Positions 6,980 to 21,020 of a stretch of DNA of 22,423 nucleotides are shown in pieces. Position numbers and translations under genes: made by a program. The notes below the pieces were generated by a model, which saw only the letters and a list, made by a program, of their open reading frames with translations, was not told the origin of the DNA and made no database searches. The first letter of the stretch is position 1. The number at the start of each line of letters is the position of its first letter. Origin of the DNA: a virus; IMG/VR virus record IMGVR_UViG_3300033153_005726, positions 64,001-86,423 of that record; one strand, given 5' to 3'.

Positions 6980-7003
6980 CTTTAAATTCCTCCAAAGAAT
7001 TTA
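6968..7003 (-). repeat. Capsid leader, copy A (SD plus first codons)
   Basis: On the minus strand this holds TAAATTCTTTGGAGGAATTT, then ATG and the codons for MANI of the capsid gene. A near copy lies at 7628-7665 on the other side of the endonuclease gene. The leading TAA is also the stop codon of the endonuclease, so the insertion ends exactly at the start of this repeat. Confidence 0.85.
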
Positions 7004-7519
7004 GGTACTTAGTACCTTTTTATCAATTAAATAATGCTTGGCGGGGCTATACCCACCCCAAGCTAAACACTGTTCAGCAGCATAACGAGCACAAACAGCA
7101 TTGATTTTGTTAACATACAAACCAAGATGCCTAAATTTACCACATACAGTTATTCTCGCAAGCCATTTTCCGTGATTTCTACCTACTCCTTTAATTCCAC
7201 TAGTCGTGTTATTTTTAGGTGTAGCTTGATTACGTTCATTATATGATTGAAAGCATTTCACTAAATTACAATACCGATCATCGTTCCGTATTCTGTTATC
7301 ATGATCAACTTGCCCATTAGGAAATTCCCCTTCCATATAAAGGATTGCTAAACGTCCTGCCCTATAACACTTACCCTTGATTTTAATTTGGGTATACCCT
7401 TTATGAGTAATTGTGCCAGCAACAGAACCAATCTTAATCTGTGCTCTACTAACTCTCCAAGTAAATAAGCCAGTATTAGGATTGTAACATAATAGTTTCT
7501 TTAATTCAACTTGGTTCAT
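7001..7519 (-). CDS. HNH homing endonuclease with AP2 DNA-binding domain
   Basis: This 172-residue free-standing endonuclease has a cluster resembling NUMOD4 at the start (YNPNTGLFTWR, residues 12-22) and an HNH core at about 70-98 (GQVDHDNRIRNDDRYCNL, with His73 and Asn94/Asn97). A C-terminal AP2-like domain follows at about 105-155 (TTSGIKGVGRNHGKWLARIT, then FRHLGLY). Such proteins nick DNA of uninvaded relatives and spread their own gene by homing. It lies between scaffold and capsid genes, where it is not needed for assembly, and is flanked by a duplication of the capsid leader. SD TGGAGAT precedes the ATG. A hairpin GGTAC-TAA-GTACC (7004-7016) sits at its very end. Confidence 0.92.
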   Translation of the reverse strand: MNQVELKKLLCYNPNTGLFTWRVSRAQIKIGSVAGTITHKGYTQIKIKGKCYRAGRLAILYMEGEFPNGQVDHDNRIRNDDRYCNLVKCFQSYNERNQATPKNNTTSGIKGVGRNHGKWLARITVCGKFRHLGLYVNKINAVCARYAAEQCLAWGGYSPAKHYLIDKKVLST

Positions 7520-7558
7520 TTTTAATCTCCATTAAAAATAACTCATATATAAATTGAG

Positions 7559-7588
7559 GCGGGGAGTGAGTTGCTCCTTTTCAACCGC
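7559..7588 (-). other. Possible RNA pseudoknot upstream of the HNH gene
   Basis: On the minus strand GCGG (7588-7585) can pair with CCGC (7562-7559). Inside, UUG (7584-7582) can pair with CAA (7572-7570), while GGAG (7577-7574) can pair with CUCC (7566-7563), crossing the first pairing. It may be a leader limiting endonuclease expression or a remnant of a mobile intron. The stems are short and judged by eye. Confidence 0.35.
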
Positions 7589-7606
7589 TAAGTCTAGCCC
7601 CAAACC

Positions 7607-7639
7607 TTAAACATTAGCAGAATCTGGGATATTAGCCAT
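7607..7639 (-). CDS. Ten-residue ORF starting like the capsid protein
   Basis: ATG at 7639-7637 behind a strong SD (GGAGG) encodes MANIPDSANV followed by TAA. The first four residues and the whole leader match the capsid gene. It is most likely a decoy or remnant left when the endonuclease entered, though ribosomes should initiate on it. Functional status unknown. Confidence 0.4.
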   Translation of the reverse strand: MANIPDSANV

Positions 7640-7665
7640 TTTGAAATTCCTCCAAAAAGAATTTA
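7628..7665 (-). repeat. Capsid leader, copy B
   Basis: The minus strand carries TAAATTC, TTTTTGGAGGAATTT, then ATGGCTAATAT, closely matching copy A at 6968-7003 apart from 2 extra T residues and a few substitutions. The two copies bracket the HNH gene as direct repeats. Confidence 0.85.
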
Positions 7666-10221: not shown

Positions 10222-12723
10222 TTAAAATCTCACTTTACGTCTCTTCATTTTAGTAAATTTACGGGTCAATCCGTAACGGAGTGCATCCATTGCATGATCC
10301 TCTAAATCAGAATCAATATCCTCAGGTTTTTTATCATCAATCTGCTGAATAGGTAAAGTTCTAATGTGATGTCTTGCAGGTTCTTGGAAATAAAGTCCAG
10401 GATTTTCAAGGTCACCCCGTTTGGCTGCACCAAGCATAGTTCGCATCAAACCCCAACCAGCTACACGACTACCGCTTCCTTTATAAGCTTTCCGCCAATG
10501 TAACCCATGACGTTGCATATTAGATGCAAGTGAAGAACCATCACGTACTTCATAAATATTTGTATCAGCGGGTCCTGGCCTCACCCTTACTTTAAACTCC
10601 CTTTCAATGTTTCTGTCAACTTCTAAAACACGTTCAGCAATATCTTGTGATGTTGCACGGTCACCTTCGTTGACCGTTCCATTCCAACCGTATAACTCAT
10701 TTATAACAATTGAAGAGCCATCTGGGAAATAAGGTAATTCTTCATCAGGGGCATCAGGTTGCTCTCCATTACATTCTGCAATATAAGTAACTGCCCATGG
10801 TTTTGAAGAACCCCAGTCAAAACTTCTGATAACATCCCAACTTGACGGGATTTGGAAATAGGGAAGTATATGTTTTGCAGGATCCCATAAATCAGTGAAA
10901 AACCCACCAGCAATAATATCCCACTCACCAAGTACCCATGCTTTATACTTAACAGGATCATCAGCAGCAGCAGCTAAGATAGTATTAACATAATTTGGAT
11001 CTGCGTCAAGTAATGTGGTATTCTCACTCAGGCTTGAGGGTATATGAACCCTTGTTTTCATACTTTCTTTATCAAGAAAGAATTTCATTGCGGGCATAGG
11101 GTCGATAAAACGCTGCTTCACCCAACCATGTCCTGGACCTGAAGGGTTGCAGGTACTACGATACTTTCTTGGTACATCAGGGTCTGAACAACGGTTACAT
11201 GACATCATTGAAAGATAACATTCGTCTGTAGCCCAGTTTGTAAGCTCTTCCCAACCAATCCAAGGATATTCATGACCATGATAGTTCCAGTAATCACTTG
11301 GTACACGCATATATCGCAAATATAAGGTTTCGCCGTCAGGGAATGTCCATTTATGCTCACTTCCGTTATATTTGGCTCCAGGGAATATTTGACTGATCCA
11401 TTTCTTACTTTTATTGATTACATCGGTTAATTGAGTGTATTCTTCACGAAAAAGAATACCACGCCATTCAATACCATAGCCTACACCCACATGCTGCAAG
11501 AAATCCATCAAGAGTACATCAGTATTGTGTGTTACGATAAAATCATCTGTTAGGTAAAGTCCATTTGGATTATTTACCTTAATACACTGACATTCTTCTT
11601 TTCCTATCAAATCTATGCTAACTATTTTGCGCACTAACCTACCATGCATATAATCAGCGGCTTTATCTTTTTTACGTTGTAATCTAAACAGTTCTTTTTG
11701 TTCAGGCAACCGTATATAAAGACCCCAACCTTTTTTTGTTTTCTTATAAAAACCTTTAGGCCACTCTGCTTTTCTATACTTGAATTGGTTCCCACGCTTC
11801 CCACCAATCAGTGTAGACCACCCACCTAAACTACCAATCAAAAACTGAATGTCTTTTATTAATGTATAAGAAGCGCTAGAATAATAGGCTTTTCCATCAT
11901 GAGCCTCTCCGTCAGTATCCATTAAACCTTGTAGTAAAGCAATCCTATCTTCTATAGAAGCATAGAGGTATTTTTTAGGTACAAATTTTGTATCGCTTTT
12001 AGTTCCCCGTAATTTAGAATGCTTTAAATCGTCATATAGCGGATTGTTTCTACGTATTTGCAACCCTATACAACTACCATCTCCTTTAACAGTAGTCGTT
12101 TTGGTATTATAAAAACCAAAACGACTAACGTAATCAACTAATTCCTGATCACCTGTATGAAAACAAACATCTTCTCTACTAAGAGATCCATCCCCTAACA
12201 ACAACCCTAATAAATAAGGATCAAAAGAATGTTGTGCTTTACTACTTATTCCTTTATTAAAAGAAACAGGTTCTGGGCAAGGTATTAAAAAAGTATTTCC
12301 AGCTTTTACTTTTTCTATAAGTTGGGTAGTTGTATAAATGTATCCACTAAATTGTAATGGGGCATATATTTTGTCTTTATTTCTGGATTTATTCCTATTG
12401 GCTACTTTTCCATACCATAAATGCTCATCAGTGCAGTGAGTGACACTACCATCTGAAAATTTAATTCTATATACATCTTGAACCCCTTGTGGGTACACAC
12501 CAATAACAGTACTGCACGTACCATCTGGGTTGAAGACACGGCTACCTATTTGCATTTCGCCTACAGTACGTTCCCCGTATGGGGTCTGCACAGGTGATGA
12601 TAGTGGTTGAGCTTTCCCACCACCACGGTTTCCGGCAATTAATGCCTCATCAGCAGGGCAAGTCAGGAACTTTTTCTGACTTCCAGGATGTGGTTGCCAT
12701 ATGACTTTATCTTGCGCAATCAT
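10222..12723 (-). CDS. Terminase large subunit, interrupted in frame by an intein
   Basis: The 833-residue precursor has an N-extein (1-37), an intein (38-400) and a C-extein (401-833). Splicing would give a 470-residue terminase, a normal length. The ATPase Walker A is GNRGGGK (31-37) joined after splicing to T401. Walker B is WIGWEE (488-493), and a coupling-type motif STCNPSG is at 523-529. The RNase H-like nuclease shows FDWG (635-638, Asp636), PAD (Asp720) and DHAMDAL (809-815, Asp809/Asp813). The enzyme cuts concatemeric DNA and pumps it through the portal. It abuts the upstream gene (TAAATG) and is followed by the portal after one base. Because the Walker A is split, the precursor should lack ATPase activity until splicing. 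Confidence 0.95.
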   Translation of the reverse strand: MIAQDKVIWQPHPGSQKKFLTCPADEALIAGNRGGGKAQPLSSPVQTPYGERTVGEMQIGSRVFNPDGTCSTVIGVYPQGVQDVYRIKFSDGSVTHCTDEHLWYGKVANRNKSRNKDKIYAPLQFSGYIYTTTQLIEKVKAGNTFLIPCPEPVSFNKGISSKAQHSFDPYLLGLLLGDGSLSREDVCFHTGDQELVDYVSRFGFYNTKTTTVKGDGSCIGLQIRRNNPLYDDLKHSKLRGTKSDTKFVPKKYLYASIEDRIALLQGLMDTDGEAHDGKAYYSSASYTLIKDIQFLIGSLGGWSTLIGGKRGNQFKYRKAEWPKGFYKKTKKGWGLYIRLPEQKELFRLQRKKDKAADYMHGRLVRKIVSIDLIGKEECQCIKVNNPNGLYLTDDFIVTHNTDVLLMDFLQHVGVGYGIEWRGILFREEYTQLTDVINKSKKWISQIFPGAKYNGSEHKWTFPDGETLYLRYMRVPSDYWNYHGHEYPWIGWEELTNWATDECYLSMMSCNRCSDPDVPRKYRSTCNPSGPGHGWVKQRFIDPMPAMKFFLDKESMKTRVHIPSSLSENTTLLDADPNYVNTILAAAADDPVKYKAWVLGEWDIIAGGFFTDLWDPAKHILPYFQIPSSWDVIRSFDWGSSKPWAVTYIAECNGEQPDAPDEELPYFPDGSSIVINELYGWNGTVNEGDRATSQDIAERVLEVDRNIEREFKVRVRPGPADTNIYEVRDGSSLASNMQRHGLHWRKAYKGSGSRVAGWGLMRTMLGAAKRGDLENPGLYFQEPARHHIRTLPIQQIDDKKPEDIDSDLEDHAMDALRYGLTRKFTKMKRRKVRF
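11524..12612 (-). mobile_element. Full-length intein with LAGLIDADG endonuclease in terminase Walker A
   Basis: The intein covers 363 residues (38-400 of the precursor). It begins with Ala (AQPLSSPVQTPYGERTVGEM) rather than Cys or Ser. Block B has the TDEH motif (98-101) and the C-terminus reads LYLTDDFIVTHN before Thr +1, so the final His-Asn and the +1 nucleophile are intact. Two LAGLIDADG helices are visible, LLGLLLGDGS (171-180) and LLQGLMDTDG (263-272), so the homing endonuclease is probably active. It interrupts the Walker A between Lys and Thr, a conserved site many inteins use. Ala1 inteins splice by a variant pathway in which the +1 residue attacks the N-terminal peptide bond directly. 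Confidence 0.95.
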
Positions 12724-14698: not shown

Positions 14699-14740
14699 AA
14701 GCGTAAGCGTGAATATAAGCGTAAGCGTAAGCGTAAGCGT
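14699..14740 (+). repeat. AAGCGT hexamer array
   Basis: AAGCGT occurs at 14699, 14705, 14717, 14723, 14729 and 14735, two then four in tandem, separated by GAATAT. It runs into the first of the 49-bp repeats and shares GCGTGAAT with them. Confidence 0.85.
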
Positions 14741-14899
14741 GAATTGATAACTAAAATACCACGATAGCACGATAAAAAGCTGTCAGGATGAGAAAAGCGT
14801 AAGCGTGAATTGATAACTAAAATACCACGACAGCACGATAAAAAGCTGTCAGCGTGAATTGATAACTAAAATAATACGCTAGTACGATAAAAAGTTCTC
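14737..14899 (+). repeat. Three copies of a 49-bp repeat
   Basis: Copies at 14737-14785 and 14803-14851 differ at one base; a third (14852-14899) directly abuts the second and is about 80% alike. Each begins GCGTGAATTGATAACTAAAA and ends with an ACGATAAAAAG segment. A 17-base spacer separates copies 1 and 2. They could be iterons for a replication initiator. Confidence 0.9.
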
Positions 14900-14999: not shown

Positions 15000-15027
15000 T
15001 TGCAATAGTATATAAACACTGCATAAT
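15000..15027 (+). promoter_or_regulatory. Early promoter ahead of the first rightward gene
   Basis: TTGCAA (15000-15005), a 16-base spacer, CATAAT (15022-15027), about 77 bases before the gene at 15105. A GCTGA-ATTT-TCAGC hairpin (about 15062-15075) lies in the leader before the SD AAAGGG. Confidence 0.5.
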
Positions 15028-15104
15028 AAATCATGGCAAGTGAATAATCACTTTGCTATATAGCTGAATTTTCAGCAAAAATTCATACCTTAAAGGGTGA
15101 TAAA

Positions 15105-15809
15105 ATGAAAGTAACAAAAAACAGTAGTAATGGTAATGGCAACAACGTAGCAAAAACATCAAAAATTCAAGTAGTTAGCATTAATAACAGGCGTGCAATA
15201 AATGCACCCACTACTGTACCGCAAGTAGTTGAAATGACTGATGTTTTTAAGCAAGTGCAATCACTGAGTAGTTTAACAGTTGAAAATGGGTATTTACTTG
15301 ATGCAAGTGGTTGTTATTACTCACCATTTGGGCATGGTAAAAAACGTGAACTGGCTAAAATGGCAAACAACGCCCAAATTGATGTGGCCTTGTGTCAAGG
15401 GGCCGTAATGATTGATATTTTAGTAAGTGATACTGATACGCCAAGTAGGGTATGCAATAGGCATAATGAGTATGATATTGAAAAACGGCCTGAATGCAAT
15501 AACACACTAAATCAGCTATTTACACTTGATTTAATTTATAATCACTTAGCATTTTTAAGTGGTAAAGGTAATGGCAAAAATAGCCTACAAAAACGGTTAC
15601 TTAACACACTTGACAAAGCCACTATTGAGCAAGTGAATGACATTGCTAGCCAGGTACATGAAATCATTACAAAAATGTGGGTTACGTGTGAGCATATGAT
15701 AAACACACGTGATGGTAGTAAAAAGCATAGTGCTCAACAGTACCAACAAACCTGTGAAATATCAGGTACTTACGGCAGGTCATTCAGTACCAAAGCAGCA
15801 ATTGTATAG
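15105..15809 (+). CDS. Early protein, paralog 1 of a SPFGH / FLSG-NGKN family, unknown
   Basis: The 234-residue protein has an N/S/T-rich start and then conserved blocks: SPFGH (73-77), IDVALCQG (92-99), a helix with HLAFLSGKGNGKNSLQKRLL (147-166), and SQVHEIITKM (182-191). All four blocks recur in the same order in the product of 20326-20814. The GNGKN segment is Gly/Asn/Lys-rich and could bind phosphate, but no known family is recognised. The gene starts the rightward cluster, behind the early promoter and SD AAAGGG. Its extra N-terminus (about 50 residues) and C-terminus (CEISGTYGRSFSTKAAIV) are absent from the paralog. AT-rich codon use marks it off from the later genes. It is probably early expressed, with unknown function. 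Confidence 0.85.
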   Translation: MKVTKNSSNGNGNNVAKTSKIQVVSINNRRAINAPTTVPQVVEMTDVFKQVQSLSSLTVENGYLLDASGCYYSPFGHGKKRELAKMANNAQIDVALCQGAVMIDILVSDTDTPSRVCNRHNEYDIEKRPECNNTLNQLFTLDLIYNHLAFLSGKGNGKNSLQKRLLNTLDKATIEQVNDIASQVHEIITKMWVTCEHMINTRDGSKKHSAQQYQQTCEISGTYGRSFSTKAAIV

Positions 15810-15821
15810 CTGGTAACTAAC

Positions 15822-15848
15822 ACCTTGCCAGCATAGTGCTGGCAAGGT
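15822..15848 (+). other. 12-bp perfect hairpin between early genes
   Basis: ACCTTGCCAGCA (15822-15833), loop TAG, TGCTGGCAAGGT (15837-15848). It is flanked by TAACTAAC direct repeats and lies before the next SD. No T-run follows, so it is a likely mRNA stabiliser or processing site. Confidence 0.85.
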
Positions 15849-16044: not shown

Positions 16045-16056
16045 GTGAACAATTAC

Positions 16057-16119
16057 AATGAGTTAGCTATGTTAGCTCATTGTGCTGGTTTACTTATAAA
16101 CCAAATGGCAATATTGCCA
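16057..16119 (+). other. Two hairpins/palindrome before the next gene
   Basis: AATGAGTTA (16057-16065) pairs with TAGCTCATT (16073-16081) with one G-U pair. TGGCAATATTGCCA (16106-16119) is a perfect 14-bp palindrome. SD TTAGGGG follows before 16148. Confidence 0.7.
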
Positions 16120-16840: not shown

Positions 16841-16874
16841 TAGTTGCTGGTAGCAATAACGCTACCAGCAACTA
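16841..16874 (+). other. 14-bp perfect hairpin before next gene
   Basis: TAGTTGCTGGTAGC (16841-16854), loop AATAAC, GCTACCAGCAACTA (16861-16874). The strongest stem in the window; just before the SD TAGGAGAA. No U-run. Confidence 0.9.
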
Positions 16875-17314: not shown

Positions 17315-17329
17315 GACGTGAAGGGGGTG

Positions 17330-17419
17330 GGTATCTTGACTGATACCGCCTCGTTATAAAGGGGTGGGTATACAGGGGTATACCCATCACATCTAAACAG
17401 GGGGATATAGACAGCCCCC
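17330..17419 (+). other. Three hairpins between 17315 and 17434
   Basis: GGTATC (17330-17335) with GATACC (17342-17347); TGGGTATAC (17365-17373) with GTATACCCA (17378-17386), 9 bp and extendable; GGGGG (17400-17404) with CCCCC (17415-17419). SD ATAGGAG follows at once. No gene is seen in this gap. Confidence 0.75.
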
Positions 17420-17672: not shown

Positions 17673-17701
17673 TTGCTAAACGATGGTATATATACTATAC
17701 T
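17673..17701 (+). promoter_or_regulatory. Early promoter TTGCTA-17-TATACT
   Basis: -35 TTGCTA (17673-17678), 17-base spacer, -10 TATACT (17696-17701). The predicted transcript starts about 10 bases before the 17718-17743 hairpin, so the RNA 5' end would be capped by the stem. Confidence 0.68.
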
Positions 17702-17717
17702 AAAAATAAAAACACAC

Positions 17718-17743
17718 GGGGTATGTCACCTACGACATACCCC
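17718..17743 (+). other. 5'-leader hairpin with ACCTAC loop
   Basis: GGGGTATGTC (17718-17727), loop ACCTAC, GACATACCCC (17734-17743), a perfect 10-bp stem. Followed by SD CTTAGGAGGG. The loop CCTA could in principle pair with the TAGG of the SD. Confidence 0.85.
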
Positions 17744-17768
17744 ACAACAACCCTTAGGAGGGTATATC

Positions 17769-17987
17769 ATGACTACAAATAAACAAGTAGCTCAAACGAC
17801 AATAGCAGTTCAACATGGTGGCGACATTGACCATATCACTAAATGGGTTCATGCTGTCCGTATGACTGATGAAAATGATATGGGTACGACATTCACCCGT
17901 ATAGCCACTTGGTTCAATGAAACTTGGGAGGTTACCATTTATGAAGGCAATCAGTATGCTGCCGACATAATCAGCAAAACACTGTAG
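17769..17987 (+). CDS. Small early protein, 72 residues, unknown
   Basis: The start chosen is ATG at 17769 behind CTTAGGAGGGTATATC, not the in-frame upstream codon at 17571 that would overlap the previous gene. The 72 residues read MTTNKQVAQTTIAVQHGGDI, then a helix (ITKWVHAVRMTD) and two strands (TRIATWFNETWEVTIYEG). The gene sits directly behind a promoter and leader hairpin and is the first of a transcript. No family recognised. Confidence 0.75.
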   Translation: MTTNKQVAQTTIAVQHGGDIDHITKWVHAVRMTDENDMGTTFTRIATWFNETWEVTIYEGNQYAADIISKTL

Positions 17988-17999
17988 GACAAAACTAAA

Positions 18000-18025
18000 G
18001 GGGTGGCTCACTTACGAGGTGCCTC
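18000..18025 (+). other. Leader hairpin with ACTTAC loop
   Basis: GGGGTG (18000-18005) pairs with TGCCTC (18020-18025) using G-U pairs, and CTC (18007-18009) pairs with GAG (18016-18018) around ACTTAC. The loop resembles that at 17728-17733. An SD (TTAGGGG) follows. Confidence 0.6.
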
Positions 18026-18049
18026 TTAATTCAAATTAGGGGACATAAC

Positions 18050-18448
18050 ATGGGACAGTATGGTAAATACAGTATTGAAGACAAGTTTAATTTCCACCCT
18101 TGTATTACAGTGACCGACTTTGCTGGACAAGGGGTGCCGCAGGAAGTGCAGGACGTACTTGAGGAATTAACCACCGACCTTAATCATGTTGAGGTACTTG
18201 AGGACATCAAAATTGCATGTTCATCAAATACAGGATGCTGCCCGAGTGATAAAGGTCCTGTTGAGTGGAGCGTAGGATCACAATATGAGGGTGGCTCTAC
18301 CTGTATATGGACGTCATATGAAAACAATGGGGTATACAGGTGGGTATACAGAGAGAGTTGGTCCGGTAATGACCATGCAGTAATTAACCAAGGACGGGAA
18401 GTGGTAGCTGATTGTTTGTGTCTTGCGACTGAAGGAAACCCTTACTAG
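18050..18448 (+). CDS. Early protein with several cysteines, unknown
   Basis: The 132-residue product begins MGQYGKYSIEDKFNFHPCIT and is mostly beta-strand and loop text, with VEWSVGSQYEGGSTCIWTSY and YRWVYRESWSGND in the middle. It contains seven cysteines (including CC in NTGCCPSDKG) and a C-terminal VADCLCLATEGNPY. The arrangement suggests a compact beta-rich domain. No known family is recognised. SD TTAGGGG. Confidence 0.77.
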   Translation: MGQYGKYSIEDKFNFHPCITVTDFAGQGVPQEVQDVLEELTTDLNHVEVLEDIKIACSSNTGCCPSDKGPVEWSVGSQYEGGSTCIWTSYENNGVYRWVYRESWSGNDHAVINQGREVVADCLCLATEGNPY

Positions 18449-18457
18449 GAGAATACA

Positions 18458-18511
18458 ATGCACGCCTTGAGAGAGCGAGGGTATATAACCGTAGGTAAGA
18501 CATTGATTTGA
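18458..18511 (+). CDS. 17-residue small ORF
   Basis: ATG behind CTAGGAGAATACA (a good SD of the same type as neighbours) encodes MHALRERGYITVGKTLI and then TGA. It lies between 18448 and the promoter at 18524. Coding status is uncertain, but the SD is as good as that of accepted genes, so a leader peptide or micro-protein is possible. Confidence 0.4.
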   Translation: MHALRERGYITVGKTLI

Positions 18512-18512
18512 T

Positions 18513-18552
18513 TACCAAACTACTTGACTTTAGATGGAATGTTTGGTACTAT
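18513..18552 (+). promoter_or_regulatory. Early promoter TTGACT-17-TACTAT with flanking inverted repeat
   Basis: -35 TTGACT (18524-18529), 17-base spacer, -10 TACTAT (18547-18552). TACCAAAC (18513-18520) and GTTTGGTA (18541-18548) are an exact 8-bp inverted repeat flanking the -35 and reaching the -10, so this looks like an operator at which a bound protein would block RNA polymerase. Confidence 0.68.
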
Positions 18553-18567
18553 AAAAATAAAACACAA

Positions 18568-18593
18568 GGGGCTGACCACCTACGGACAGCCCC
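18568..18593 (+). other. 5'-leader hairpin with ACCTAC loop (second copy)
   Basis: GGGGCTGACC (18568-18577), loop ACCTAC, GGACAGCCCC (18584-18593) with one A-A mismatch. It follows the promoter as at 17718-17743 and precedes CCTAGGAGGG. Stem sequence differs while the loop and SD are kept, which suggests selection on structure. Confidence 0.85.
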
Positions 18594-18618
18594 ACTATAA
18601 CCCCTAGGAGGGTATAAC

Positions 18619-18933
18619 ATGGCACGCATCAAACGACAGTTAATAATCAGGCGTGATGGTGAGACCACTGAAAAAACGGTATACACACCACAGGTCGTAA
18701 AACGTCCATCACCTAAAACATGGGAGAAGGTATGTATGACAGGTAGCACCGATGAGCAGCGTAAACGCCTCACCAATGGACAGTGGGCTGAATATAGTGA
18801 GCTCCGCAGGGGTTTACACATCATTGATCCAAACATGATGATTGAAGACGCAAGCCTCAGTACATTGCGGGACATCATGCGCACTGTTAATATCATGGAC
18901 TGCAAGGTGGCTATTCACCGTATGTCCGTATAA
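18619..18933 (+). CDS. Small early basic protein, 104 residues, unknown
   Basis: Behind CCTAGGAGGGTATAAC. Unlike its acidic neighbours it is basic at the start (MARIKRQLIIRRDGETTEKT), with a charged loop (VKRPSPKTWEKVCMTGSTDE) and helix (QRKRLTNGQWAEYSELRRGL). Then comes LSTLRDIMRTVNIMDCK. No family recognised; nucleic acid binding is possible from charge. Confidence 0.77.
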   Translation: MARIKRQLIIRRDGETTEKTVYTPQVVKRPSPKTWEKVCMTGSTDEQRKRLTNGQWAEYSELRRGLHIIDPNMMIEDASLSTLRDIMRTVNIMDCKVAIHRMSV

Positions 18934-18940
18934 CACAACT

Positions 18941-18984
18941 GGGGTGGCTACGACAGCACCTCACAATTTACCCCTAAAGGGGTA
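18941..18984 (+). other. Two hairpins before 19000
   Basis: GGGGTG (18941-18946) with CACCTC (18957-18962), loop including CTACGAC; and TACCCC (18969-18974) with GGGGTA (18979-18984). The SD TAGGAG follows. Confidence 0.7.
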
Positions 18985-18999
18985 CACTAGGAGAACAGT

Positions 19000-19395
19000 A
19001 TGAAAATTTTAGTAGACCAAACAAGCTTTCAATCCCAGGATTATGCAGGCATCACCGACCCAGTAGCATCACTGTCCATTATTGAGGTACCTGATACGAC
19101 CAATGTGCAATTGATTAACAACGGCACTTCCTGTAACTTTATTTGGTTGGATGAACCTGATCAATACCCTATCATCCGCAATATTAATATCACACTGGAT
19201 GATGTGTTTATCAACCCTATGTGCGACACTGCCCCTGATCATATTTATGATGCCTTTGCATTTGACAAAGGGGACGTGCCTGCTGCAGGACAGCCTGATG
19301 ATGAACGGTTTAGGATGTCAGTAGCACTGCATCATCTGTATTACCGCATTGTTATCACTGAGGACATCATGGCCATTTACGCTGATTACTTATAG
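19000..19395 (+). CDS. Early acidic protein, 131 residues, unknown
   Basis: Behind CTAGGAGAACAGT. Strongly acidic: DDV, DEPDQYP and CDTAPDHIYDAFAFDKGDVP. Starts MKILVDQTSFQSQDYAGITD, then beta-strand text (ASLSIIEVPDTTNVQLIN), and a C-terminal helix LHHLYYRIVITEDIMAIYAD. No family recognised. Its SD class matches 17435, which suggests co-regulation at the translational level. Confidence 0.77.
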   Translation: MKILVDQTSFQSQDYAGITDPVASLSIIEVPDTTNVQLINNGTSCNFIWLDEPDQYPIIRNINITLDDVFINPMCDTAPDHIYDAFAFDKGDVPAAGQPDDERFRMSVALHHLYYRIVITEDIMAIYADYL

Positions 19396-19413
19396 GATAC
19401 CTAACCAACCATA

Positions 19414-19497
19414 TAGTAGTGTCCTCTAAATAGTTAAGGGCTGTAAGTAGGGGACATTACTACAATTGTCTACTTTCACCGCCTAGGGCAAAGTAGA
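19414..19497 (+). other. Two hairpins in the gap before 19522
   Basis: TAGTAGTGTCC (19414-19424) with GGACATTACTA (19452-19462), one G-U pair; and TCTACTTT (19469-19476) with AAAGTAGA (19490-19497). They are followed by ACACAAGGATACC before the gene at 19522. Confidence 0.75.
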
Positions 19498-19521
19498 TAA
19501 AACCTAACACAAGGATACCAT

Positions 19522-19860
19522 ATGAATTTCTTACTTATCGCAGCTTACAGGGCAGGTTATCAAATGTACGGTCCTGAATCAGGGCATGTCTACTTTTCGT
19601 TTTACTCTACTGATATCGTCCATACCACACTATCTGAACGTATTGAAGAGGATGAGGAGAACGGGTATGATCCTGAAGACTTTGGTTTACTTGGGACACA
19701 TGAGTATGGCTTTACCTTGGACGGGGTGGGTATTGATTGTGCCGACACCCTTATTTCAGAACATGCTACCCATGACACTTTTTACACTTATCATCCTGAA
19801 GTGGGTGTCTCAGTAATAACGGGGTGTAATGCAACACTGAGATGTGGTTCTAAAGAGTAG
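19522..19860 (+). CDS. Early acidic protein, 112 residues, unknown
   Basis: Begins MNFLLIAAYRAGYQMYGPES, a hydrophobic start followed by acidic text (IEEDEENGYDPEDFGLLGTH). The rest is beta-like (TLDGVGIDCADTLISEHATH) with a C-terminal VSVITGCNATLRCGSKE. SD AAGGATACC. Not recognised. Confidence 0.75.
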   Translation: MNFLLIAAYRAGYQMYGPESGHVYFSFYSTDIVHTTLSERIEEDEENGYDPEDFGLLGTHEYGFTLDGVGIDCADTLISEHATHDTFYTYHPEVGVSVITGCNATLRCGSKE

Positions 19861-20233
19861 TAATCGGACGCTCACACGTCTAACAGGGGGTGGCATCTGC
19901 CTTGGTATGGCCTAATAAAAAAAGACGGGTACAGGGCAACCTCACGTCTTCGTCCTTCAAAAAGGACACCTGTCGTCTAAAACAATGTATCGTCCCGATT
20001 AGGGGTGGCACGTCCTTTCCACGACGATAGGAATTAGACAATACCGAATTAGAAATATTAGACGACCATATACTTTCGGGTCGGTATTTCATTTATTGGA
20101 CCAAAGGAGTCTGGGTCGCAATATAACAACGGGGATATGGACAACCACTCGTCCATGTCCATATATACCGTAGGTATATAGGACACCCTTAGAAATAAGA
20201 AGGAAACTATTTTCAAATAGAGGAAACTTTTAC
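19861..20233 (+). ncRNA. Candidate structured RNA in a 465-bp gene-free gap
   Basis: No ORF with a plausible start is seen on the plus strand. Stems read by eye: GGCA (19892-19895) with TGCC (19898-19901); AAGACG (19922-19927) with CGTCTT (19945-19950), enclosing AGG-GCAA-CCT; GTCCTT (19952-19957) with AAGGAC (19962-19967); and ATCGTC (19989-19994) with GACGAT (20023-20028) around GTGG/CCAC. Two stems are mutually exclusive: ATATGGACA (20135-20143) with TGTCCATAT (20156-20164), versus GTCC(A)TATATACC (20157-20169) with GGTATATAGGAC (20173-20184). GACG and GTC motifs recur throughout. A promoter for it was not found, so it could also be the long leader of 20326. Confidence 0.45.
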
Positions 20234-20262
20234 TTGCAAATAGACACGAAACTTTGTAAATT
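20234..20262 (+). promoter_or_regulatory. Early promoter TTGCAA-17-TAAATT
   Basis: -35 TTGCAA (20234-20239), 17-base spacer, -10 TAAATT (20257-20262) overlapping a further TATAAT. The tract TTGCAAATAGACA is also the -35 and start of the spacer of the promoter at 22142. It precedes the paralog gene at 20326, with a hairpin at the RNA 5' end. Confidence 0.62.
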
Positions 20263-20273
20263 ATAATTATCAA

Positions 20274-20300
20274 TGAGGCACACCACTAATGGGAGCCTCA
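20274..20300 (+). other. Leader hairpin with ACTAAT loop
   Basis: TGAGGC (20274-20279) with GCCTCA (20295-20300), an inner CC/GG pair and a central ACTAAT. SD CCTAGGAGGG follows. Confidence 0.7.
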
Positions 20301-20325
20301 CATATAAACCCTAGGAGGGTACAAC

Positions 20326-20814
20326 ATGACAAATCTTAACACTTTCAAAGCTATTGCCGAGAGAGCAGTCAATTCACCTAAGATAGCTGAAATTACAGAC
20401 GCCAATGCTGCATTGGATGAGCTTAGACTTCTGAATCTGCAGGGGCAGATGCAAGGTAATCGCCACTTGTCACCGTTTGGACATAACGCTACTGCTACCA
20501 ACGGGGATATTGATTTTGCTCTGTGTCGTGGGGAGCGTTTGTTGGACGATGTGATTGACAAAGTAAGTCGTTTCAAGAAGACACGTAAGGCTGACTATAG
20601 TACAGACAGAGGCGCATTGGCAAAATGTGTAGATCAGCACTTGAAATTCTTGTCAGGCCGCAATAATGGTAAGAATCGCCTTGCAGACCGCCTTATACGC
20701 TTCATGGGTGAAGATAAAATGGCACAGGCCATTGAAATGGAAGCTCAGATACACGCTATCATGTCACCTATTTACGATAGGATGCACACTGCATACCTTG
20801 CCACCTATAAGTAG
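20326..20814 (+). CDS. Early protein, paralog 2 of the SPFGH / FLSG-NGKN family, unknown
   Basis: This 162-residue protein is homologous to the product of 15105-15809: SPFGH (49-53), IDFALCRG (62-69), HLKFLSGRNNGKNRLADRLI (105-124), and AQIHAIMSPIYDRM (140-153). It lacks the other's long N- and C-terminal extensions, so it may be closer to the core domain. Its codon use has more GC. Starts behind CCTAGGAGGGTACAAC, a promoter and a leader hairpin, so it is the first gene of a transcript. The family is unrecognised. The Asn/Gly/Lys motif and conserved helix suggest a nucleic acid or nucleotide binding role, unproved. Confidence 0.87.
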   Translation: MTNLNTFKAIAERAVNSPKIAEITDANAALDELRLLNLQGQMQGNRHLSPFGHNATATNGDIDFALCRGERLLDDVIDKVSRFKKTRKADYSTDRGALAKCVDQHLKFLSGRNNGKNRLADRLIRFMGEDKMAQAIEMEAQIHAIMSPIYDRMHTAYLATYK

Positions 20815-20872: not shown

Positions 20873-20956
20873 GAAGGACTGCTCAGGAAGCATGCGGGGG
20901 AAACATGAAGGACTGCATGGGAAACATGAAGGACTGCTCAGGAAGCATGCGGGGGA
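20873..20956 (+). repeat. Two 29-bp exact repeats with a related unit between
   Basis: The bases at 20873-20901 and 20928-20956 are identical; both begin GAAGGACTGCTCAGGAAGCA. A shorter related unit (starting about 20907) lies between. The tract is followed by an inverted repeat CGTATAG (20976-20982) with CTATACG (20985-20991). No gene is called here: a GTG-start frame at 20856 exists but it lies in the repeats. Confidence 0.85.
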
Positions 20957-21020
20957 TAACATACTGCCCAGGAAGCGTATAGGACTATACGGGGATAATA
21001 CTCACATAGGAGGACACAAC

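What the first reader, a model, noticed from the sequence alone, without database searches (positions are those of the whole stretch)
17673..20300. Family of 5'-leader hairpins with ACYTAC-type loops on early transcripts
At least three early promoters (17673, 18524, 20234) are followed within about 15-20 bases by a GC-rich hairpin, then an SD. Loops are ACCTAC, ACCTAC and ACTAAT, and another leader (18010) has ACTTAC. The stems differ in sequence but keep their pairing, so structure and loop seem selected. Loop CCUA could pair with the SD UAGG or with a phage protein. This may be a regulon of RNA stabilisers or translational switches.
Basis: partly seen in the sequence, partly recalled or inferred. 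Interest (0 to 1): 0.72.

Follow-up and report, generated by a model that had tools for sequence, protein, structure and literature searches.

The report
Promoter–hairpin–SD modules on phage early genes

Summary
Leaders A (17673), B (18524) and C (20234) each have a sigma70-like promoter (17-nt spacer), a hairpin, then an SD. A, B and the 18000-18025 hairpin share an ACYTAC hexaloop and covary: 5 of 10 pairs change on both sides, 28 of 30 cells stay paired. A fourth module at 15000 was missed. Leaders of this early block are unusually structured (median z -3.6, against -0.07 in the other early block, -0.92 in late leaders, -0.13 in coding windows).

Three relatives carry the same layout at orthologs of genes B and C (B in 4/4 phages, C in 3/3). 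Across ten modules the hairpin starts at +1 to +16 of the predicted start and ends 16-32 nt before the AUG. Hairpin sequences and loops differ, which rules out the ACYTAC loop as a clade-wide signal. Loop-SD pairing is at most 4 bp and fails for C. No module has a + strand U-tract.

Best reading: structure-only 5' stem-loops that protect or insulate early mRNA, as in ompA or T7 gene 10, in repeated cassettes reminiscent of T4-type PeSLs but without their terminator. The mechanism is inferred: start sites are predicted and no expression data exist.

The parts
15033..15059 (+). 5' leader hairpin of module P, loop ATAA, starting about at the predicted transcription start
   Evidence: z -3.5 for the leader
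15105..15809 (+). gene P, 234 aa, paralog of gene C, no Pfam/PHROG family
   Evidence: (E 8e-15)
15822..15848 (+). intercistronic hairpin, 12 bp, upstream of gene 15883
   Evidence: z -4.2
16045..16093 (+). intercistronic hairpin upstream of gene 16148
   Evidence: z -5.1 for the leader
16841..16874 (+). intercistronic hairpin, 14 perfect bp, upstream of gene 16892
   Evidence: z -9.6
17321..17419 (+). three successive intercistronic hairpins upstream of gene 17435
   Evidence: z -2.9, -5.3, -2.3
17673..17701 (+). predicted promoter A, TTGCTA-17-TATACT
17718..17743 (+). leader hairpin A, 10 bp, loop ACCTAC, +11 to +36 of predicted start
17750..17763 (+). SD of gene A inside a 4-bp mini-hairpin ACCC-TTAGGA-GGGT
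17769..17987 (+). gene A, 72 aa, unknown function
18000..18025 (+). intercistronic hairpin upstream of gene 18050, loop ACTTAC; no promoter of its own
18524..18552 (+). predicted promoter B, TTGACT-17-TACTAT
18568..18593 (+). leader hairpin B, loop ACCTAC, +10 to +35 of predicted start
18600..18613 (+). SD of gene B inside mini-hairpin ACCC-CTAGGA-GGGT
18619..18933 (+). gene B, 104 aa, unknown; orthologs in L046, L049 (partial), L178
18940..18984 (+). two intercistronic hairpins upstream of gene 19000
   Evidence: z -3.1
19414..19500 (+). two long intercistronic hairpins upstream of gene 19522
   Evidence: z -5.4
20234..20262 (+). predicted promoter C, TTGCAA-17-TAAATT (weak match)
20274..20300 (+). 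leader hairpin C, interrupted stem, loop ACTAAT in one paired reading
   Evidence: z -2.7 to -3.0
20308..20320 (+). SD of gene C inside mini-hairpin ACCC-TAGGA-GGGT; the string ACCCTAGGAGGGT is the same in the L178 ortholog
20326..20814 (+). gene C, 162 aa, unknown; orthologs in L046 and L178

Best explanation
The hairpins are structure-only stem-loops at the 5' ends of early mRNAs. Host RNA polymerase starts at a sigma70-type promoter; the RNA folds, from its first 1-16 nt on, into a hairpin that ends 16-32 nt before the AUG, about at the edge of the ribosome's footprint. The hairpin shields the 5' end from host decay enzymes that need a free 5' end (RppH/RNase E type) and keeps upstream RNA from masking the SD, so that few early transcripts give much protein. 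The promoter-hairpin-SD unit has been copied within the genome, and stems drift freely as long as they pair. Intercistronic hairpins of the same block would serve downstream cistrons in a similar way. Shown: the layout, the covariation, the recurrence at orthologous genes, the lack of loop conservation. Inferred: start sites, protection, insulation, the enzymes involved.
For: Covariation in the paralogous hairpins. Early-block leaders median z -3.6 against -0.07, -0.92 and -0.13 in controls. Orthologs of B in four phages and of C in three all have promoter, hairpin and SD. Ten modules: nine read with a 17-nt spacer, one (P) with 16; hairpin start +1 to +16, hairpin end 16-32 nt from the AUG, mean z -3.3, hairpin sequences unalike. 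Five promoters in more distant relatives mostly lack it (mean z -0.8, one below -2.5). Precedent: sequence-independent 5' stem-loops protect ompA and T7 gene 10 mRNA, and adding the T7 one quadrupled GFP output (PMC2254391).
Against: No transcript ends or half-lives are known. Stabilisers of the ompA type work best with very few unpaired 5' nt (own knowledge); A, B and two L178 modules leave 9-15. Single z-scores are weak for L046_B (-1.3), L046_C (-2.1) and L178_g16892 (-0.6). The modules in relatives were picked out by eye around a known layout, so part of the regularity is selected for. The host is unknown, so its decay enzymes are too.
Confidence: 0.5

Rival explanations
1. A translational operator: a phage or host protein binds the leader hairpin (ACYTAC loop) or the SD mini-hairpin and switches early translation, as T4 gp43 or MS2 coat protein do.
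For: A, B and 18000-18025 share an ACYTAC hexaloop. In several phages the SD lies in a small hairpin whose arms covary: ACCC/GGGT here, AAACC/GGTTT and TACC/GGTA in L043, TTTACT/GGTAAA in L044, CTACT/GGTAG in L047; unrelated viruses with CCGTAGGAGG show no such arms beyond chance.
Against: Loops are not kept in orthologous modules. The SD mini-hairpin is absent from L049_B and L178_B, and genome-wide SD pairing is not above permuted pairs (G000 7.71 against 7.52). Protein operators normally keep loop bases.
Confidence: 0.15
2. A PeSL-like mobile regulatory cassette: the promoter-hairpin unit mainly serves as a recombination patch that shuffles small early genes, and any expression effect is secondary.
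For: The unit is repeated within one genome (81% A/B over 71 nt) in front of unrelated small genes; L046 likewise has two similar promoters and SDs.
Against: PeSLs are promoter-terminator composites by the title of Comeau 2014; no + strand U-tract follows any of ten hairpins. The modules stay with the same orthologous genes in four phages. In L046 the two hairpins differ more (11 of 23) than their flanks (31 of 40, 25 of 35), unlike a recombination patch.
Confidence: 0.12
3. An attenuator, pause or antitermination signal in the nascent RNA (put-like or nut-like) that modifies RNA polymerase.
For: The hairpin emerges right after initiation on early transcripts, as in HK022 put (own knowledge).
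Against: One hairpin only in most modules, no shared sequence, no U-tract; no Rfam match. put and nut need specific sequences (own knowledge).
Confidence: 0.1
4. RNase III or other processing sites that cut polycistronic early mRNA.
For: Perfect intercistronic stems of 10-14 bp.
Against: Stems of the promoter modules are mostly 5-10 bp, short for RNase III, and lie at 5' ends where cutting would free little. Not tested.
Confidence: 0.06
5. Terminators read on the opposite strand that block antisense transcription into early genes.
For: A and B are followed by U-rich tracts on the minus strand; A is called as terminator-like.
Against: The minus-strand tract is weaker in the other modules (2-5 T in 8), and the U-rich stretch is just the A-rich start of the transcript.
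Confidence: 0.05

Closest known systems
5'-terminal stem-loop stabilisers (E. coli ompA, papA; phage T7 gene 10 leader)
   Same: Hairpin at or near the 5' end, upstream of the SD, sequence-independent
   Different: Here it is multi-copy across an early region, stems differ at every gene, some leave 9-15 unpaired 5' nt; no stability data
PeSL cassettes of T4-type phages (Arbiol 2010; Comeau 2014; seen here only through citations and titles in PMC4503421)
   Same: Early sigma70-like promoter plus stem-loop, repeated between small variable early genes
   Different: No U-tract, so no sign of a terminator; the hairpin lies in the leader of the gene, followed by an SD; modules stay with orthologous genes
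T4/RB69 gene 43 RNA operator (PMC3014915)
   Different: That loop (UAAC) is conserved and bound by gp43; here loops vary and the genes have no polymerase match

Membership tests
PeSL (promoter early stem-loop) | early sigma70-like promoter | tested here: inconclusive
   hexamers with 16-17-nt spacers in all ten modules, but promoter matches overall equal shuffled expectation
PeSL (promoter early stem-loop) | stem-loop that is an effective transcription terminator | tested here: not met
   0-3 T in the 8 nt after the stem on the + strand in all ten modules
PeSL (promoter early stem-loop) | repeated units that mediate gene shuffling | tested here: inconclusive
   repeats present; no exchange seen, modules stay with orthologs
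ompA/T7 g10-type 5' stabiliser | stem-loop at or within a few nt of the 5' end | tested here: inconclusive
   predicted hairpin start +1 to +6 in six modules, +10 to +16 in four; real 5' ends unknown
ompA/T7 g10-type 5' stabiliser | sequence-independent, structure conserved | tested here: met
   covariation, unalike hairpins at orthologous genes
ompA/T7 g10-type 5' stabiliser | longer mRNA half-life | not testable with these tools
   needs experiment
loop-recognised translational operator | conserved loop nucleotides | tested here: not met
   loops differ across four phages
curated RNA family | Rfam covariance model at gathering score | tested here: not met
   no match in the window
RNase III site | cleavage by RNase III | not testable with these tools
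   needs experiment

The most novel reading that the evidence does not exclude
A clade of uncultured siphophages marks its early mRNAs by shape alone, with a 5' hairpin of free sequence at a fixed place between promoter and SD, so that they outlast host messages under host or phage-induced decay: a self-mark without a sequence code.
Probability: 0.12. Interest if true: 0.65.

Novelty: new variant of a known kind. Interest (0 to 1): 0.42.

Why it matters
It is a natural replicate series: the same two small early genes in several phages keep promoter, hairpin and SD while the hairpin sequence turns over. That separates shape from sequence without mutagenesis and offers compact, sequence-flexible leader parts. 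If the hairpins protect early mRNA, it shows how a phage secures early expression without a dedicated binding protein.

Tried and rejected
Loop-SD pairing: at most 4 bp, fails for C. Conserved loop as protein signal: lost in relatives. Intrinsic terminator: no U-tract. Rfam: nothing credible in the window. SD mini-hairpin as a general rule: mean not above permutations, not consistent at major capsid leaders of 33 relatives, arms in unrelated viruses at chance. A perfect-stem scan alone misses interrupted hairpins such as B and C. Exact cassette SD string in IMG/VR: no match. Searches with early proteins of the window in IMG/VR: no relatives; L046's own B protein found only itself and a near-identical contig. 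Terminase small subunit as anchor worked. Genome contigs gave one distant terminase relative in a MAG contig that is the same sequence length as a viral contig already seen, so no host is named. Cultured phages: no DNA match, no B or C homolog. The PeSL papers are not held.

Full report
Setting. The window is 64001-86423 of an 86,423-base phage record. Late structural genes lie on the minus strand (terminase, portal, capsid, tail), early genes on the plus strand from 15105 on. No cultured phage matches by DNA, and the early proteins tested have no clear Pfam or PHROG family.

Observation. The three promoter-hairpin-SD leaders are present. Hairpins A and B are far more stable than dinucleotide shuffles (0 of 300 reach them); C is moderate. 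The unit from about -10 to ATG of A and B is repeated (81% over 71 nt) and its SD end recurs at C (87%). On the ungapped alignment of A, B and the 18000-18025 hairpin, five of ten pairs change on both sides and 28 of 30 cells pair; slid controls give no such change. Only three paralogous rows, so this is suggestive on its own. A fourth module was found at 15000-15107; its gene is a paralog of gene C.

Is it local? Leaders of the block 15.1-20.4 kb have median z -3.6, 8 of 13 below -3; the other early block has -0.07 (2 of 17), late leaders -0.92 (1 of 11), coding windows -0.13 (1 of 35). Gene calls were made by a simple script, which uses the same leader routine, lists the leaders of genes 17769 and 18619 twice, so two of the 13 are probably counted twice; the numbers are approximate.

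Relatives. Capsid and terminase small subunit searches gave relatives in IMG/VR. Gene B has orthologs in L046 (E 6e-6), in L178 (found with the L046 protein, E 1e-6) and, from its N-terminal 33 residues at a contig end, in L049 (by eye, not by BLAST); gene C in L046 (5e-4) and L178 (7e-6). Each is preceded by a TTG-17-TA promoter-like pair, a hairpin and an SD. Over ten modules in four phages the hairpin starts at +1 to +16, ends 16-32 nt from the AUG, mean z -3.3, with three weak cases. Hairpin sequences and loops differ: ACCTAC twice, ACTAAT, ATAA, ATAAG, GAGTG, GACATA, TGAA, ACAC, AGTGA. Five promoters in more distant relatives mostly show no such hairpin (mean z -0.8); five is few. L049 has three called intercistronic leaders, and a fourth seen by eye, with GGGACCG-CYTGC-CGGTCCC whose outer pair switches between A-U and G-C.

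Mechanism. No U-tract on the + strand argues against termination. Variable loops argue against a loop-binding protein or loop-SD pairing. What is constant is a stem near the 5' end that stops short of the start codon by about a ribosome footprint. That is the layout of ompA and T7 gene 10 leaders, where a 5' stem-loop protects the mRNA; adding the T7 stem-loop to an expression vector quadrupled GFP (PMC2254391). I therefore favour protection or insulation of early mRNA, at 0.5. It is inference; start sites are predicted.

SD mini-hairpins. In A, B, C and at several early genes of L043, L044 and L047 the SD sits in the loop of a 4-7 bp hairpin whose arms covary. Unrelated viruses with the same SD core show no excess. 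It is missing from other modules, so it is a second, separate lead for translational control.

Verdict. Observation confirmed; interpretation partly supported: structure yes, loop no. A new variant of a known kind.

Noticed in passing
10222-12723 (-): The large terminase has an insertion of about 360 residues (roughly aa 39-400) relative to relatives, splitting the Walker A region; it looks like an intein (matches span intein-bearing terminases, a primase and a helicase loader). Some relatives seem to carry an insertion near aa 805 instead.
   Followed up: partly
7001-7650 (-): An ORF that looks like an HNH endonuclease (by eye) sits just upstream of the major capsid gene, and a near-copy of the capsid gene's own leader and start (AAATTCTTTTTGGAGGAATTTCAAAATGGCTAATATC) lies upstream of it, as if a mobile gene had inserted there and duplicated the leader.
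   Followed up: no
19861-20233: A 373-nt stretch without a called gene, strongly structured (z -4.0), upstream of gene C; L178 has a long gene-poor structured stretch at the same place (z -2.8).
   Followed up: partly
L038:16018-17775 (same phage record, outside the window): An ORF matching thymidylate synthase only at its C-terminus, with an HNH endonuclease match in the middle: possible intein or intron-like insertion.
   Followed up: no
L042, L043, L044 early leaders: Another recurring leader element, TTCATTATCAGG-stem-CCGAATAAGGTNTTAAT, with variable stems in three relatives; no Rfam match.
   Followed up: no
L043:8218-8287 (-): Rfam match to int-alpA RNA (RF02996, 39.9 bits) in a relative's early region.
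   Followed up: no
14700-14890: Repeats of the type GCGTAAGCGTGAATTGATAACTAAAATACCACGA in the gap between the divergent late and early blocks, a candidate origin or control region.
   Followed up: no
20880-21000: Short repeats (GGAAACATGAAGGACTGC, GAAGCATGCGGGGG) after gene C.
   Followed up: no
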